A stretch of 64,000 nucleotides of DNA from Flavobacterium algicola (GTDB taxonomy: Bacteria > Bacteroidota > Bacteroidia > Flavobacteriales > Flavobacteriaceae), in assembly GCF_022399565.1 (NCBI RefSeq), contig NZ_JAJTUT010000002.1, positions 930,001-994,000 on the forward strand, given 5' to 3'. Each line of letters opens with the position of its first letter. Position 1 is the stretch's first letter. The notes below the pieces were generated by a model that was not told where the DNA came from, did no database searches, and saw nothing but the letters and a program-made list of their open reading frames with translations. Both the position numbers and the translations under genes were made by a program. This document shows positions 7,816-50,736 of this stretch, piece by piece.

Positions 7816-8862
7816 ATGAAAAATCTACTTAAGATTGCTAGAGAGCAGCGTGGTATAAAAACTAGAGAGCTGGCGCAATTGGCAAGCATTGACCAAGCTT
7901 TGATTAGCAAATTTGAAAGTGGCGCTCGAAAGCCTACCAAAGAACAAATTTTAAAACTCTCTACTTTATTAGAAATTAACTATGATACCTTAATGGTGGC
8001 CTGGTTAAAAGAAAAAATTTTATATGAAATTGGAGATGAACCTTTAGCTTTAAAAGCCATAAAAGAAGCTGAAGATGAAATTAAATATTTAAGAAATGCA
8101 AGCACTACCACTATTTCGAGAGCACTGCAACAGTTACTAAATGAGATTGATATTTTAAAACAAAAACGAGACAATCTTCTGCCATCGGATGTTGCAATGG
8201 TAAGGAAAGCTATCGAAATTAATTACACTTTTGAAAGCAATCGCTTGGATGGCAATACACTGACCCAAAGTGAAACAGAAATGGTTATTACAAAAGGTAT
8301 GACTATCTCGGGTAAAAGTATGCGAGAACATCTTGAGGCTATCAATCATCAAGAAGCAATTGCACACTTGAAAAATTTAGAAGACAAAACTTCTTTGAAT
8401 GAAAAAGAAGTATTAACGATTCATAATTTGATTTTGCGGGGTATCAATCCGTCCGTGGCTGGTTCTTATAGGAAAGAAATTCTAGTTAACGAAGCAAATA
8501 GCTATTCAACTTCAGCTCCTCAAGAAATCGCCAAAGATATGGAGGAATGTTTGATTTGGTATGAAATGAATAAAAGCAAACTGCACCCCGTACTTTTGGC
8601 GGCTAAGATACATGAGCGTTTGTCGCATATACACCCATTTGCTGACGGAAATGGAAAAACTATTCGCTTGATAATGAATTCGATTTTAGTACAGCATGGA
8701 TATACTATTGCTACTATTAAAGGAGATGATGCGACTAAAGCGAATTATTACAAAGCCATAGAAAAAGCATTAGCAACCAAAGACGATGAAGACTTTCAGC
8801 TCTTTATTGCAGAGGTTGAAAAAAATTCCTTGGAACATTATATTGCAAATGTCACAAAATAA
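7816..8862 (+). CDS. Fic family protein with N-terminal XRE helix-turn-helix
   Basis: About 348 residues. Residues 1-65 form a Cro/C1-type HTH (AREQRG..TRELAQLASIDQALISKFESG), the middle is a helical linker, and the C-terminal half is a Fic domain with the core HPFADGNGKTIR. Fic enzymes transfer AMP or another nucleotide to hydroxyl groups of target proteins. The motif here has Lys where many have Arg, which is tolerated. Upstream of the core lies SNRLDGN, resembling the inhibitory (S/T)xxxE(G/N) helix of class II Fic proteins but with Asp for Glu. ATG 7795 would add 7 residues; I prefer 7816, where the HTH begins behind an A-rich leader. Stand-alone between two terminators. Target unknown. 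Confidence 0.9.
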   Translation: MKNLLKIAREQRGIKTRELAQLASIDQALISKFESGARKPTKEQILKLSTLLEINYDTLMVAWLKEKILYEIGDEPLALKAIKEAEDEIKYLRNASTTTISRALQQLLNEIDILKQKRDNLLPSDVAMVRKAIEINYTFESNRLDGNTLTQSETEMVITKGMTISGKSMREHLEAINHQEAIAHLKNLEDKTSLNEKEVLTIHNLILRGINPSVAGSYRKEILVNEANSYSTSAPQEIAKDMEECLIWYEMNKSKLHPVLLAAKIHERLSHIHPFADGNGKTIRLIMNSILVQHGYTIATIKGDDATKANYYKAIEKALATKDDEDFQLFIAEVEKNSLEHYIANVTK

Positions 8863-8900
8863 GAAAACCATTCGCTACACGAATGGTTTTCTTGTTTTAT
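8861..8900 (+). terminator. Terminator after the Fic gene
   Basis: Perfect 14-bp stem AAGAAAACCATTCG / CGAATGGTTTTCTT with a 5-nt loop, overlapping the stop codon. The T-run is short (GTTTTAT). Confidence 0.8.
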
Positions 8901-9799: not shown

Positions 9800-9855
9800 A
9801 GCCCGCGTGAGTGATAGAAGCTAGCTACCGAAGTAGCGCGGATAGCACGACAGCA
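9800..9855 (+). repeat. Dispersed hairpin element, copy A
   Basis: Begins AGCCCGCGTGAGTGATAGAAG and ends GCGGATAGCACGACAGCA, with an inner hairpin GCTAC-CGAA-GTAGC. The ends match the other four copies in the window (near 15.8, 18.7, 23.9 and 50.6 kb). It is richer in GC than its surroundings. It is followed at once by a terminator-like hairpin, so it may be transcribed. Confidence 0.65.
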
Positions 9856-46251: not shown

Positions 46252-47073
46252 TTAATTAATAATTTTCAGTTTTATAAAGGCTTCTTTAGTTGCACTTAGA
46301 CGTATTGCTGGAAATTCGTCCATAGTTGTATTTTGTTTTTCGATATTAGTGGCGAAAAAATAAACAGAATTATTGGTTTCTAAATATCCAACTAACCAAC
46401 CATTATTTATTTCACCTCTCATACCCCAACCCGATTTTCCACTTAAAACATAATTTTCAGTTTTTTCAATCTGCATTATGTCTTTCATTATATTTTCTGT
46501 TCTTTTTGAAATCGGTAGTTTTGAATAATATAATCTTTCTAAAAAGTCAATTTGTTGCATCTGCGAAAATTTTGATTTTCCTTGTAACCAAAAATCATCA
46601 ATTGTTAAAGTATCTACTACCATTCCGTTATAATTCAACTTTTTCAAATAAGATTTCATTCTCTTTACACCAATCTTTCTAGCAATTTCTTGGTAACAAG
46701 GAACACAAGAAACTTGAAAAGCTTCTTTGAAAGTTAAATCTTCTTCCCATTTTTTAAATCTACGTTTTTCTCCATCCCATTTAAAAACTGTGGAATCACT
46801 TTTAATTATTCCAGTTTCTAATGCAATAATAGAATTTGGAATTTTAAAAGTAGATGCAGGAATAATTCCTGTTTTTGTCCATGCAAAATCATTCGAATAA
46901 TACTTTTTATTTCCTACATCGTAAATTAAAATTGCTCCTGTAACCTTCAGACTATCTAAAACATTTCCAAATTCAGATTTTTTAATTTCACTTGGTTTTA
47001 GATTTTTTATTTGACAGTTTGCACTAAAATTAACTAATAGTAGAAGATTTAAAAGTAAAGCTATTTTTCGCAT
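46252..47073 (-). CDS. Class D (OXA-type) beta-lactamase
   Basis: 273 residues with a signal peptide (MRKIALLLNLLLLVNFSANC), so periplasmic. Motifs: Ser74-x-x-Lys77 (PASTFK), SCV at 122-124, the third motif read as YNG at 148-150 where OXA enzymes usually have YGN, WLQG at 162-165 and KSG at 213-215 (KTG in many). All active-site residues but the swapped YGN order are kept, so hydrolysis of penicillins is likely but unproved. No mobile element is adjacent; similar genes are often intrinsic to Flavobacteriaceae. Directly upstream of the gene remnant. Confidence 0.85.
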   Translation of the reverse strand: MRKIALLLNLLLLVNFSANCQIKNLKPSEIKKSEFGNVLDSLKVTGAILIYDVGNKKYYSNDFAWTKTGIIPASTFKIPNSIIALETGIIKSDSTVFKWDGEKRRFKKWEEDLTFKEAFQVSCVPCYQEIARKIGVKRMKSYLKKLNYNGMVVDTLTIDDFWLQGKSKFSQMQQIDFLERLYYSKLPISKRTENIMKDIMQIEKTENYVLSGKSGWGMRGEINNGWLVGYLETNNSVYFFATNIEKQNTTMDEFPAIRLSATKEAFIKLKIIN

Positions 47074-48017: not shown

Positions 48018-48467
48018 AATATTTTACTTTTTAAATTTTAAATTAAATTCTAACTCAAATTTCCTTATATTAAAATAGGATTGGGATAAAGTTCCGAGCT
48101 TTTTTTTAAATATGTACAAATTCTTCTATTATAAAATCGTTTTTTACATACATGCTCCTTATTTTTTTTATAAGACTGCTAATGTCTGTACGTCTTACAA
48201 CCTACACCCTACATTAATTTAACTAACTTGAGAGTAAAAATAGTAGATTTAGGCTACAATCACATGACTTATAGCATAAAAATTTAGATTAGGTTTCTGC
48301 TTTTATACATTAGCGGAACGCTAGTATAGGTTTGGGGTAGACTTATTTTTAGGACGAGACAAATTATTAATATTTATTTTTATAATTTGTAAGCACGAGC
48401 GGGACGCTCGCGCGAACTGGGGACGATGCATTACATAGGAACGGTTAATACCTGCAGTTTTTTTTAT
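48018..48467. other. AT-rich intergenic region with two GC-rich palindromes
   Basis: About 450 bp. It holds TAGCG-GAA-CGCTA (48310-48322) and GAGCG-GGA-CGCTC (48396-48408), both of the form nAGCGGRACGCTn, with otherwise AT-rich sequence. I see no gene. Confidence 0.5.
48310..48411. repeat. Two related AGCGGRACGCT palindromes
   Basis: TAGCGGAACGCTA and GAGCGGGACGCTC, 5-bp arms with 3-nt loops, 74 bp apart, at the left border of the AT-rich split gene. Related GC-rich palindromes are common between genes in Flavobacterium. Confidence 0.5.
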
Positions 48468-49457
48468 TTAGTTTTCTCTCTTACTTAATAATATATCGTC
48501 TTCAATTTTCAGAAGAATTAATATAAAAATTTTCAAAATTACATTATAATCATTTTCTTGAACATCTTTTGATTCAGAGTTTGAACCGTGAATATATTTA
48601 TTTCGTAAATCTAAACCATTAGAAAATTCTTTCTTATTTAAATTATAATTTAAATAGCGTATTTCTTCTCGAGTAAACAAAGAATTTTCAAATTCCACTT
48701 CATTCTGCTTTTCTAACTCAATTAAAATTTTTTGTATTTCTAAAGGGAAATGCCAAAAACTTATAACCTCTTCATAGTAAAATGAACTAAAAATAAGAGA
48801 CATAATTCTGTCAACTCTAATAAAGTTATTGATGTCAAAAAAAATGATTTTCTTCTCTAATAAATAATCAATTTCACGTTTTTGAAACCCTTCAAATATG
48901 TCATAGGTGACATTTTCATTTGAAAGCAGTTCATACAGAAAATTATATTTTTTTTTAAATGGGTCAATATAAGTTAAAAATGAGTGTGTCGAATATAAAC
49001 CATATTTTATGCGATTAATATTCTCGCCTTTAGGATATACATATTTAATCGCTACTTTGCTTTTTAGTTTGCTAAAATATATAGGAGAAGAGTTAAATCG
49101 TAACAATTCAAAATCTATTTCACCGTCTTCAATAAATGTATGGTATTGTTTTAATAGAAATTCTAATTCAGGTGCTAGAATACGCACTTTTTCATAAAAT
49201 TCTGTTTCTTTTGAAGGTATTGATATTTTTAATTGTTCAATACCATAGACTTTTTGTAGAATTTCTAAAACGACAAAAGAAATGGTATCTTCAATGTCAA
49301 TATTTTTATTTTTTAAGTAATACTTATATAAAGCAAATTGTCCATTAGAGAGAAGTTCTTTTTGAGTAAATTTTATATATTTTAAAAATTCTCCTTTTGA
49401 ACGCATAAAAATTCTATCCATCGTATCCAATTCGCAATTGCGATGCACTAAATTCAT
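48468..49457 (-). CDS. 3' part of a probable split gene; HEPN-like C-terminus
   Basis: 329 residues from ATG 49457. Not a family I recognise. Helix-rich and very AT-rich, with a C-terminal DLRNKYIHG that fits the RNxxxH catalytic motif of HEPN ribonucleases, followed by a long hydrophobic helix. The coding frame continues upstream of the ATG through 49480-49510 without a stop and joins the end of the upstream frame after a one-base shift, so it is probably the 3' half of a single gene of about 639 residues. Confidence 0.6.
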   Translation of the reverse strand: MNLVHRNCELDTMDRIFMRSKGEFLKYIKFTQKELLSNGQFALYKYYLKNKNIDIEDTISFVVLEILQKVYGIEQLKISIPSKETEFYEKVRILAPELEFLLKQYHTFIEDGEIDFELLRFNSSPIYFSKLKSKVAIKYVYPKGENINRIKYGLYSTHSFLTYIDPFKKKYNFLYELLSNENVTYDIFEGFQKREIDYLLEKKIIFFDINNFIRVDRIMSLIFSSFYYEEVISFWHFPLEIQKILIELEKQNEVEFENSLFTREEIRYLNYNLNKKEFSNGLDLRNKYIHGSNSESKDVQENDYNVILKIFILILLKIEDDILLSKREN

Positions 49458-49479
49458 ACAGCCTTGAAAATTGACATAT

Positions 49480-50388
49480 TCAAAATAACAGAGTGAAATT
49501 TTTAAATATAGAAAAAAAATCTGTTGTGTTATTGAGATGATTTTCGCTATAAGTATAGGTTAATCTATTTTGTACTTCATTGTATTCTAATCTTTTAAGT
49601 TCTATTTGTTCTCCAGAAATTCCTATTTCAACACCATAAGATATACCATTGTTCTTCTCGAAAAATGATTTTGTAATTTCACGCTCTTTTTTAGAAGCTC
49701 TAAATTTAGTTTTATAATCCAGTTTTAAATTTTGAGAATTTACAATGAGATTAATGTAATTTAAGTTCGGTTCCGAAAGTGAAATATATCGATTAATCAA
49801 TAATTCAATTTTAGCAGATGAAAAAATTTTAGGTATGTAAATTTTTTTCTTCTTACTTAATGAAATTTCCTCGTAGTGAGATAAAATTATTTCAGCAGTT
49901 TCGGGATTTTTCTCAAAATGCTCTAAAATTACTTTTGAATAGTAATTTACTAATTCTTGATTACATAAAACGTCTTGGAATATATATTTTTTGGATGTCA
50001 ATAAAGTAGACATCAGACTAGAATCAATTTTTTTAAATAGACTTAATTTGTTGAATAATTCCCAAAAATTATGAGTATACTGAAAATTTATTTCTTTAAA
50101 AATTTTAATGAAATTTGAGTTGTCGATTGTTAAAAAAAAGTTCTTTATTAATTCCCAAAACTCATCTGCTATATTTTTATATTTTTGGAATTTTTCATCG
50201 GACCACGTAGGTAATCGAAGATTGTTTTTAAAGTATAACTGAATATTATACAGTTCTAATAAATCATTGATCACAAAGGAATTGTTCTTATCAAATAATT
50301 GAATTATTTTTTCTGCATTTTTTAAATTTATTCCACTGCCTAAATCATCATTTGAATAATAAACAACCCTTCTTAAATCATCTGACAT
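49480..50388 (-). CDS. 5' part of a probable split gene
   Basis: 302 residues from ATG 50388. Helix-rich, Phe/Asn/Lys-rich, no signal peptide, no motif I recognise. Its last nine codons after an 8-nt homopolymer (plus strand A8 at 49512-49519) look unlike the rest, and with seven A the frame runs into the next open stretch. I therefore read both as one disrupted gene. Confidence 0.6.
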   Translation of the reverse strand: MSDDLRRVVYYSNDDLGSGINLKNAEKIIQLFDKNNSFVINDLLELYNIQLYFKNNLRLPTWSDEKFQKYKNIADEFWELIKNFFLTIDNSNFIKIFKEINFQYTHNFWELFNKLSLFKKIDSSLMSTLLTSKKYIFQDVLCNQELVNYYSKVILEHFEKNPETAEIILSHYEEISLSKKKKIYIPKIFSSAKIELLINRYISLSEPNLNYINLIVNSQNLKLDYKTKFRASKKEREITKSFFEKNNGISYGVEIGISGEQIELKRLEYNEVQNRLTYTYSENHLNNTTDFFSIFKNFTLLF

Positions 50389-50575
50389 TTCCTGTTATTT
50401 TGATTATGAATTTAAATTATATTTCTGATTCCGAGGAAAATTACTGCCAACTAGCGTATAGATCAGACAAAATAGGTCATATCACACCAATATCGGGTAG
50501 ATACGTATGATAGATATTATTATTTATTTTTCGAATATAAGAAAATTATCAATGCAAATAAAGAATATTCTCACT

Positions 50576-50649
50576 AGCCCCGATAGCAGTAAAAATCCTC
50601 TTGTATGGCGATAGCCAATACTAGAGATTGTAACGAATAGCGGGACCAA
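50576..50649 (+). repeat. Dispersed hairpin element, copy E
   Basis: Begins AGCCCCGATAGCAGTAAAAATCC and ends AACGAATAGCGGGACCAAA, with inner hairpin GTAT-GGC-GATA-GCC-AATAC. It stands at the right border of the split gene. Confidence 0.75.
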
Positions 50650-50699
50650 ACACTATTAAGTAACGAAATCATTCTGCTCTTGAAAAAAAATAGAGGCAC

Positions 50700-50736
50700 A
50701 AAAAAAAAGCGAAGTAAATAAATACTCCGCTTTTTA
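50700..50736 (-). terminator. Terminator of the leu-ilv operon
   Basis: On the minus strand AAAAAGCGGAGTA-loop-TACTTCGCTTTTT with one G-T pair and then nine T. Confidence 0.85.

What the first reader, a model, noticed from the sequence alone, without database searches (positions are those of the whole stretch)
48468..50388. AT-rich gene split by a homopolymer frameshift, with a HEPN-like RNxxxH end
Two minus-strand open frames abut. Frame 1 ends in nine odd codons after an 8-A run (plus strand 49512-49519). If the run had seven A, the frame would read straight through into frame 2, giving one protein of about 639 residues. The downstream part ends in DLRNKYIHG, matching the RNxxxH motif of HEPN ribonucleases. 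The gene is more AT-rich than its neighbours and lies between a pair of GC-rich palindromes and repeat copy E, as expected of acquired DNA. A homopolymer of this length can slip, so this may be phase-variable, decayed, or a sequencing error. I do not recognise the family; it could be part of an undescribed defence or toxin module.
Basis: partly seen in the sequence, partly recalled or inferred. Interest (0 to 1): 0.78.

Follow-up and report, generated by a model that had tools for sequence, protein, structure and literature searches.

The report
Broken HEPN phage-defence candidate gene
This is one gene of a little-studied bacterial defence-candidate family, broken by a small frame change; it probably encodes an RNA-cutting enzyme that shuts down phage-infected cells, and its cutting domain seems to carry an extra DNA/RNA-binding-type module in the same place as an immune regulator of animals.

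Summary
The two minus-strand frames (49480-50388 and 48468-49457) are halves of one gene. They match consecutive parts of the PADLOC candidate-defence profile PDC-S56 (positions 1-304 and 314-644 of 649), and 45 of 45 related loci fetched read through this point in one frame. The break is not at the 8-A run: that run has the same length and is in frame in the intact relative of Flavobacterium degerlachei, and the "odd" codons after it are homologous. The frame is lost about 30 bases further on, at frame 1's stop codon. RN-x-Y-x-H is invariant (35 of 35 aligned; present in all 44 loci that reach it), and the C-terminal model resembles HEPN structures, at modest scores. Most striking: a winged-helix-like insert sits between the presumed HEPN helices 2 and 3, where Roquin carries its ROQ domain. 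The gene was acquired: 90% DNA identity to F. degerlachei at a different site, against 71-81% for other genes. Both halves show dN/dS near 0.14, so the break is recent or a sequence error. Most likely mechanism: a solo abortive-infection protein, helical-repeat sensor half plus HEPN RNase half. Function is inferred.

The parts
49480..50388 (-). N-terminal half of the PDC-S56 gene (302 aa; helical-repeat, presumed sensor half, plus a small part with strands at its end)
   Evidence: PADLOC PDLC05039 positions 1-304, E 1.9e-83; 87% identical to the intact relative L004/L021; model m0f599cc2b19a
48468..49457 (-). C-terminal half of the PDC-S56 gene (329 aa from the first ATG): HEPN-like domain with an inserted winged helix
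   Evidence: PDLC05039 positions 314-644, E 4.4e-109; 92% identical to L004/L021; model me3d7b77f6ddf
49480..49490 (-). where the two frames part, at the stop codon of frame 1
   Evidence: protein and DNA alignment with the intact F. degerlachei gene
49512..49519 (-).
48588..48605 (-). RNKYIH catalytic-type motif (RN-x-Y-x-H) of the HEPN-like domain
   Evidence: translation; R, N, Y and H invariant in 35 of 35; coordinates counted by hand
48459..50443 (-). extent of DNA homology to the F. degerlachei copy (90.4%): the gene plus 55 bases upstream and 9 downstream; no match beyond
   Evidence: blastn

Best explanation
A horizontally acquired, single-gene, candidate phage-defence determinant of the PDC-S56 family, recently broken by a frame change in its middle. 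The intact protein (about 640 aa) has an N-terminal alpha-helical repeat half (presumed sensor or regulator) and a C-terminal HEPN-like RNase domain with RN-x-Y-x-H as the active site. A winged-helix-like module is inserted between HEPN helices 2 and 3 and probably positions RNA or controls the active site. On infection the sensor half would release or dimerise the HEPN domain, which cuts RNA and stops growth (abortive infection, as reported for the HEPN protein Tha). Shown here: family membership, break, motif conservation, transfer; predicted: the fold. Inferred: RNase activity, trigger, role of the insert, abortive infection.
For: Both halves match one PADLOC profile end to end. 45 of 45 relatives read through the boundary in one frame. 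R, N, Y, H of the motif plus E366 invariant in 35 of 35. C-terminal model pTM 0.85; 8 of its 10 best VIA rows are HEPN-containing entries from four kinds of protein: HEPN toxin 7ae6/7ae8 Z 6.5, Roquin 4z30/4qik/4txa Z 6.3-6.0 and 4qil Z 5.5 (rmsd 15.4), AF_0298 2hsb Z 5.9, Csm6 6tug Z 5.6; part of the insert matches MarR-type winged helices at Z about 5. The DUF4209 alignment (a known HEPN family) scores 34.8 against a maximum of 19.8 in 40 shuffled controls. Patchy: 7 of 299 genomes of the genus, 6 of 395 of the phylum, own genome and partial hits included. Defence-type neighbours in relatives; an Enterococcus plasmid copy lies beside a ThsB-like TIR gene and near a PDC-S28 gene. Transfer: 90.4% DNA identity at another site against 71-81% for the best long matches of two other stretches.
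Against: No assay. Foldseek alone gives no match with E below 0.001, and VIA Z below 8 may mean only a common helical arrangement (note). The sequence profile finds no solved relative, and the nearest intact relative has no Pfam match at E up to 1; the window's own halves have only a sub-threshold GidB hit. Single DUF4209 sequences score 17-30 and overlap the controls. The insert is not net basic (-3), so nucleic-acid binding by it is unproven. The window copy lies between ORFs that look like housekeeping genes (by eye), not in an evident defence island. Near and far neighbours of relatives were both rich in defence profiles, so the association is with islands, not with a partner.
Confidence: 0.72

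Rival explanations
1. The gene is intact in the living strain and the frame change is a sequencing or assembly error. Biology as in the best explanation, but nothing is broken.
For: dN/dS against the intact relative is 0.141 and 0.133 in the two halves, and the window deviates at family-conserved columns hardly more than the intact relative does (9 against 9 of 42; 16 against 15 of 65): no sign of decay beyond the break.
Against: The break is not in the 8-base run, where errors are likeliest; the assembly is otherwise good (6 contigs, 99.96% complete). A recent real mutation leaves the same traces.
Confidence: 0.3
2. The split is real and useful: two subunits, sensor half and HEPN half, made by re-initiation at the ATG 22 bases after frame 1's stop, or one protein made by ribosomes that change frame at that stop.
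For: The break falls at residue 302 of 639, about 20 residues before a low-confidence stretch of the model (321-340, pLDDT 60-67), and frame 2 from its ATG (about residue 311) holds the whole modelled HEPN part, 328-639. Both halves bear the mark of purifying selection.
Against: 0 of 45 relatives are split here; the nearest one is intact at 90% DNA identity, so the selection may all predate the break. The break itself lies in a confidently modelled stretch (301-310, pLDDT 95), not in the linker.
Confidence: 0.07
3. A HEPN RNase of this gene serves stress control or a toxin-antitoxin role rather than phage defence.
For: HEPN domains occur in such systems (PMC3710099, passages read); no defence gene is evident next to the window copy; PDC-S56 is a candidate only.
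Against: No conserved partner gene: of 365 neighbour proteins from 39 loci the widest cluster spans 3 loci, all Flavobacterium with the same neighbours; patchy spread, mobility, island neighbours and plasmid copies suit defence.
Confidence: 0.15
4. Phase-variable gene switched by the 8-A run.
For: An 8-base run lies inside the gene.
Against: The run is equally long and in frame in the intact relative, and the codons after it are homologous.
Confidence: 0.02

Closest known systems
PADLOC PDC-S56 (phage-defence candidate, single gene)
   Same: Full-length profile match in two consecutive pieces; all 35 aligned relatives match.
   Different: The window copy is broken in frame. The family name occurs in no paper of the held library; what PDC stands for was read in PMC11514479 passages, how the candidates were chosen is recalled, not read.
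HEPN superfamily, in particular DUF4209/C6orf70 (PF13910)
   Same: Rx4H motif with N after R, conserved upstream acidic residue, last helix after the motif, C-terminal position; alignment-level similarity above controls (PMC3710099 passages).
   Different: Below Pfam's cut-off (7 of 35 members, best E 0.061); an insert of about 150 residues between the presumed helices 2 and 3.
Tha (tail-activated HEPN anti-phage protein of S. aureus prophages; PMC11087260, passages read)
   Same: Solo protein, N-terminal part of unknown fold, C-terminal HEPN with RN-xxx-H, abortive infection by RNA cleavage: the closest working analogue.
   Different: 301 aa against about 640; prophage-borne with its own inhibitor; no sequence relation tested.
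Roquin HEPN-ROQ (PMC4346627 and PMC4614863, passages read)
   Same: A domain with a winged helix inserted between HEPN helices 2 and 3; VIA Z 5.5-6.3 over ranges that span both flanks.
   Different: Eukaryotic mRNA-decay regulator with RING and zinc finger; no sequence match found; PDC-S56 keeps an RNase-type motif.

Membership tests
PADLOC PDC-S56 | profile match over the length of the protein | tested here: met
   PDLC05039 1-304 and 314-644 of 649, E 1.9e-83 and 4.4e-109
PADLOC PDC-S56 | one continuous gene | tested here: not met
   The window copy is broken in frame; relatives are continuous through the point (45 of 45)
PADLOC PDC-S56 | protects from phage | not testable with these tools
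   needs an assay
HEPN superfamily | Rx4-6H motif, polar residue after R | tested here: met
   R595, N596, H600 in 35 of 35; motif present in the other 9 loci that reach it, L025 ends before it
HEPN superfamily | conserved acidic residue upstream of the motif | tested here: met
   E366 in 35 of 35; that it is the equivalent residue is inferred from its place in the first helix
HEPN superfamily | four-helix HEPN fold | tested here: inconclusive
   8 of 10 best VIA rows are HEPN-containing entries but Z is at most 6.5; Foldseek alone not significant
HEPN superfamily | metal-independent RNase activity | not testable with these tools
   needs purified protein
DUF4209 / C6orf70 | Pfam PF13910 above its cut-off | tested here: not met
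   7 of 35 members, best E 0.061; no match in the window's genome
DUF4209 / C6orf70 | profile-profile relatedness around RN..H | tested here: inconclusive
   score 34.8, E 0.0013; controls: 19.8 maximum of 40 shuffles, 24.0 maximum of 127 neighbour proteins; the 8 single sequences 17-30
Other families with PADLOC profiles (any HEPN system among them) | match to their PADLOC profiles | tested here: not met
   at E up to 1, besides PDC-S56 only PDC-S33 (2 of 35, best E 0.00093) and Cas4 (1 of 35, E 0.00073)
Tha | sequence or profile match to Tha | not tested
   no Tha sequence was fetched
Roquin-type HEPN-ROQ | winged helix between HEPN helices 2 and 3 | tested here: inconclusive
   model elements: helices 38-53 and 70-94, insert with winged-helix match at 127-213, helices 246-256 and 280-311; residue-level superposition not seen
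Roquin-type HEPN-ROQ | sequence homology to Roquin | tested here: not met
   profile search of PDB sequences found only an unrelated row at E 1.5

The most novel reading that the evidence does not exclude
PDC-S56 is a bacterial counterpart of Roquin's HEPN-ROQ module: an active HEPN RNase whose helix 2-3 insert, a winged helix, recognises structured RNA (a stem-loop, perhaps a tRNA arm) and so sets the target, while a helical-repeat half senses the phage. In the window the frame break has parted the sensor half from the effector half, about 20 residues before the linker between them, which may leave a freestanding HEPN half.
Probability: 0.18. Interest if true: 0.75.

Novelty: new variant of a known kind. 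Interest (0 to 1): 0.42.

Why it matters
PDC-S56 has been a bare catalogue entry in what could be searched here. Seeing it as a HEPN effector with an invariant RN-x-Y-x-H and a winged-helix insert in the helix 2-3 slot gives it a mechanism that one point mutation can test. The insert's position, shared with Roquin, raises the question whether HEPN RNases in defence gain substrate choice by domain insertion at that slot. The window copy also shows how such genes live: moved, apparently alone, between Flavobacterium chromosomes, and broken or reduced to relics.

Tried and rejected
The 8-A run as slip site: rejected. Phase variation there: rejected with it.

Conserved operon partner: none found; of 365 neighbour proteins from 39 of the 45 loci the widest cluster spans 3 loci.

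Near against far neighbours as a control for defence association: both sets, taken from 36 of the 45 loci, hold many defence profiles (250 and 80 profiles at E up to 1e-10 for 127 and 92 proteins; only 25 of each list are shown, so members cannot be counted); the comparison does not isolate the gene.

Full-length fold search: the first 250 residues give only loose matches to helical-repeat proteins (PUF, HEAT-like, nuclear transport; Z at most 6.6); not claimed as a fold. Viral structure library: no match with E below 0.001. PHROGs: none for L021. NCBIfam: none for L021, single weak hits for others. Phage records: none.

PDLC05038, the second PDC-S56 profile, matches weakly and in part. The G529 hit (E 5e-4 inside a very long open frame) is taken as chance. 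Integron-type ends for the mobile unit were looked for by eye in the sequences and not established. Promoter and terminator scan: no more than chance.

Literature: PDC-S56 in 0 papers. Only passages were read of PMC3710099, PMC11087260, PMC11514479, PMC4614863 and PMC4346627; all other papers were seen as search listings only.

Full report
What is there. The window lies in a genome of 4.27 Mb in 6 contigs, of the same genus as G113, whose contig agrees in length and sequence with one of Flavobacterium degerlachei DSM 15718. On the minus strand, downstream of a gene I name ilvC from its sequence (name recalled), two frames abut: 49480-50388 (302 aa) and 48468-49457 (329 aa). PADLOC's profile PDLC05039, 'PDC-S56', matches the first with positions 1-304 and the second with positions 314-644 of 649 (E 1.9e-83 and 4.4e-109). 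They are one gene in two frames.

Where it breaks. The nearest relative found is the F. degerlachei gene (L004 = L021, 639 aa, one frame), 87% and 92% identical to the two halves and 90.4% in DNA. The frames part at about 49480-49490, at frame 1's stop, which corresponds to residue 302 of 639. So the observation of a split gene stands, but the cause offered for it does not.

Is it a natural boundary? The genome scan returned 43 loci and the viral scan 2; two pairs of them are identical over the last 400 residues. All 45 read through residue 302 in one frame. Four are cut by contig ends (L025, L029, L050, L065), L039 has one in-frame stop near residue 540, and L054 lacks about the first 220 residues. 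None is split where the window's copy is.

How old is the break? Against F. degerlachei, dN/dS is 0.141 for the first half and 0.133 for the second. At columns conserved in the family the window deviates 9 times of 42 and 16 of 65, the intact relative 9 and 15. There is no decay beyond the break, so it is recent or a sequence error; these tools cannot separate the two.

Where it came from. The DNA homology to F. degerlachei ends 55 bases before the start codon and 9 bases after the stop codon, and the neighbours differ: threonine synthase there, ilvC here. Other genes of the two genomes share 79-81% (ilv genes) and 71-79% (best long matches of a second stretch; a further 67% match overlaps one of them and is probably to a paralogue), so 90.4% for this AT-rich gene (24.3% G+C against 33.4% in the window) means recent transfer, apparently of the gene alone. 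The family is rare and patchy: 7 of 299 genomes of the genus, the window's own and one with a relic included, and 6 of 395 genomes of the phylum, its own included, two of the six being short partial hits. The genome scan was limited by the two peptide patterns used. Besides Bacteroidota it found Alteromonas and MAGs labelled Campylobacterota and Saccharimonas. Five plasmid records have matches, four in Enterococcus and one in Pseudoalteromonas; phage records none.

What the protein is. In 35 aligned relatives R595, N596, Y598 and H600 are invariant, as are E366, E575, N584, N590, G591, Y614 and K627. Nine further loci that reach the motif also have it; L025 ends before it. The HEPN superfamily is described by an Rx4-6H motif, a polar residue after the R, an upstream acidic residue and a four-helix fold with frequent inserts between helices 2 and 3 (PMC3710099, passages read). 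The sequence features are met. AlphaFold2 gave the full-length relative pLDDT 88.0 and pTM 0.74, and its C-terminal half (328-639) pLDDT 88.8 and pTM 0.85. Foldseek found nothing significant. The second look with VIA-align puts HEPN-containing entries in 8 of the 10 best rows: HEPN toxin 7ae6/7ae8 (Z 6.5, rmsd 4.5-4.7, 117-118 aligned), Roquin 4z30, 4qik, 4txa (Z 6.3-6.0, rmsd 3.6-3.7, 117-120 aligned) and 4qil (Z 5.5, rmsd 15.4), AF_0298 2hsb (Z 5.9), Csm6 6tug (Z 5.6) (that Roquin and Csm6 hold HEPN domains comes from the papers, not from the entry titles). The other two rows, the best one among them, are a designed filament and an engineered helix bundle, and the tool warns that Z below 8 can be a common arrangement. 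The fold is therefore likely, not proven.

The insert. Helices 38-53 and 70-94 of the C-terminal model would be HEPN helices 1 and 2, and 246-256 and 280-311 helices 3 and 4, with the motif at 268-273 (the assignment is mine). Between helices 2 and 3 lie about 150 residues whose part 127-213 matches MarR/MepR-type winged helices (Z about 5). [quoted passage not shown] The place is the same; a common origin is not claimed, since no sequence match was found. The insert is not net basic (-3), which speaks against a simple nucleic-acid grip.

DUF4209. Pfam's DUF4209, which overlaps the C6orf70 HEPN family (PMC3710099), matches 7 of 35 members with a best E of 0.061, below its cut-off. Alignment against alignment, the C-terminal half scores 34.8 (E 0.0013) around RN..H and the last helix; column-shuffled controls reached 19.8 at most (40 runs) and 127 neighbour proteins 24.0. 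The eight DUF4209 sequences taken singly scored 17 to 30, overlapping those controls. I call it a possible to probable distant relative.

Mechanism. By analogy with Tha, a HEPN protein with RNSIMH whose histidine is needed for protection and which degrades RNA when triggered by a phage tail protein (PMC11087260, passages read), I propose an abortive-infection RNase: the helical-repeat half senses, the HEPN half cuts. Shown: motif, spread, transfer. Predicted: fold. Inferred: everything about activity, trigger and target. The defence link rests on the PADLOC listing, on defence-type profiles hit by neighbours in relatives (type I and II R-M, SIR2, bSEFIR, LmuA, PDC-S23, PDC-S69 among the hits of 127 near neighbours, with a similarly rich list farther out), and on an Enterococcus hirae plasmid copy beside a ThsB-like TIR gene and near a PDC-S28 gene, with three recombinase-family genes interspersed.

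Verdict. A real, recently broken (or mis-sequenced) copy of a catalogued but uncharacterised defence candidate. The break is ordinary. The interest lies in the family: an apparently active HEPN RNase with a winged helix in the slot where Roquin carries ROQ.

Noticed in passing
L015 about 8688-8881 (G112:C1:1214660-1214758 region): Relic of the same family in another genome of the genus: a few dozen codons around LRNKYLHGTNS, in two frames, the rest not found. Suggests that such genes are lost repeatedly.
   Followed up: partly
window 50575-50701: Dispersed element of about 125 bases with diverged copies elsewhere in the window's genome and in G005 and G113 (71-77% identity for the long matches); part of it also lies beside ilvC in G005, so it probably predates the inserted gene.
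   Followed up: partly
window 46252-47073: Penicillin-binding-type transpeptidase domain (E 6.9e-34) in a 273-aa protein with STFK; looks like a class D beta-lactamase (family name recalled).
   Followed up: no
L010 10895-10943 and window 9805-9853: A 49-base stretch, 92% identical, shared between the downstream flank of the F. degerlachei copy and an intergenic stretch of the window: probably another dispersed repeat.
   Followed up: no
L116 5173-7161: Enterococcus hirae plasmid member (662 aa, 22% identity in the profile alignment, motif RNKYEH) with ThsB-like TIR, PDC-S28 helicase and three recombinase-family genes around it.
   Followed up: partly
L053 7893-9938: Candidatus Saccharimonas MAG member with an N-terminal extension (NWLNGKSKPTRKALQENIDTLY) that looks, by eye, like a helix-turn-helix remnant.
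   Followed up: no
window 48459-50443 against L010 8688-10671: A single gene with about 55 bases of leader shared between two different chromosomal sites, with no recombinase gene evident beside either copy (by eye); how it moves is unexplained.
   Followed up: partly
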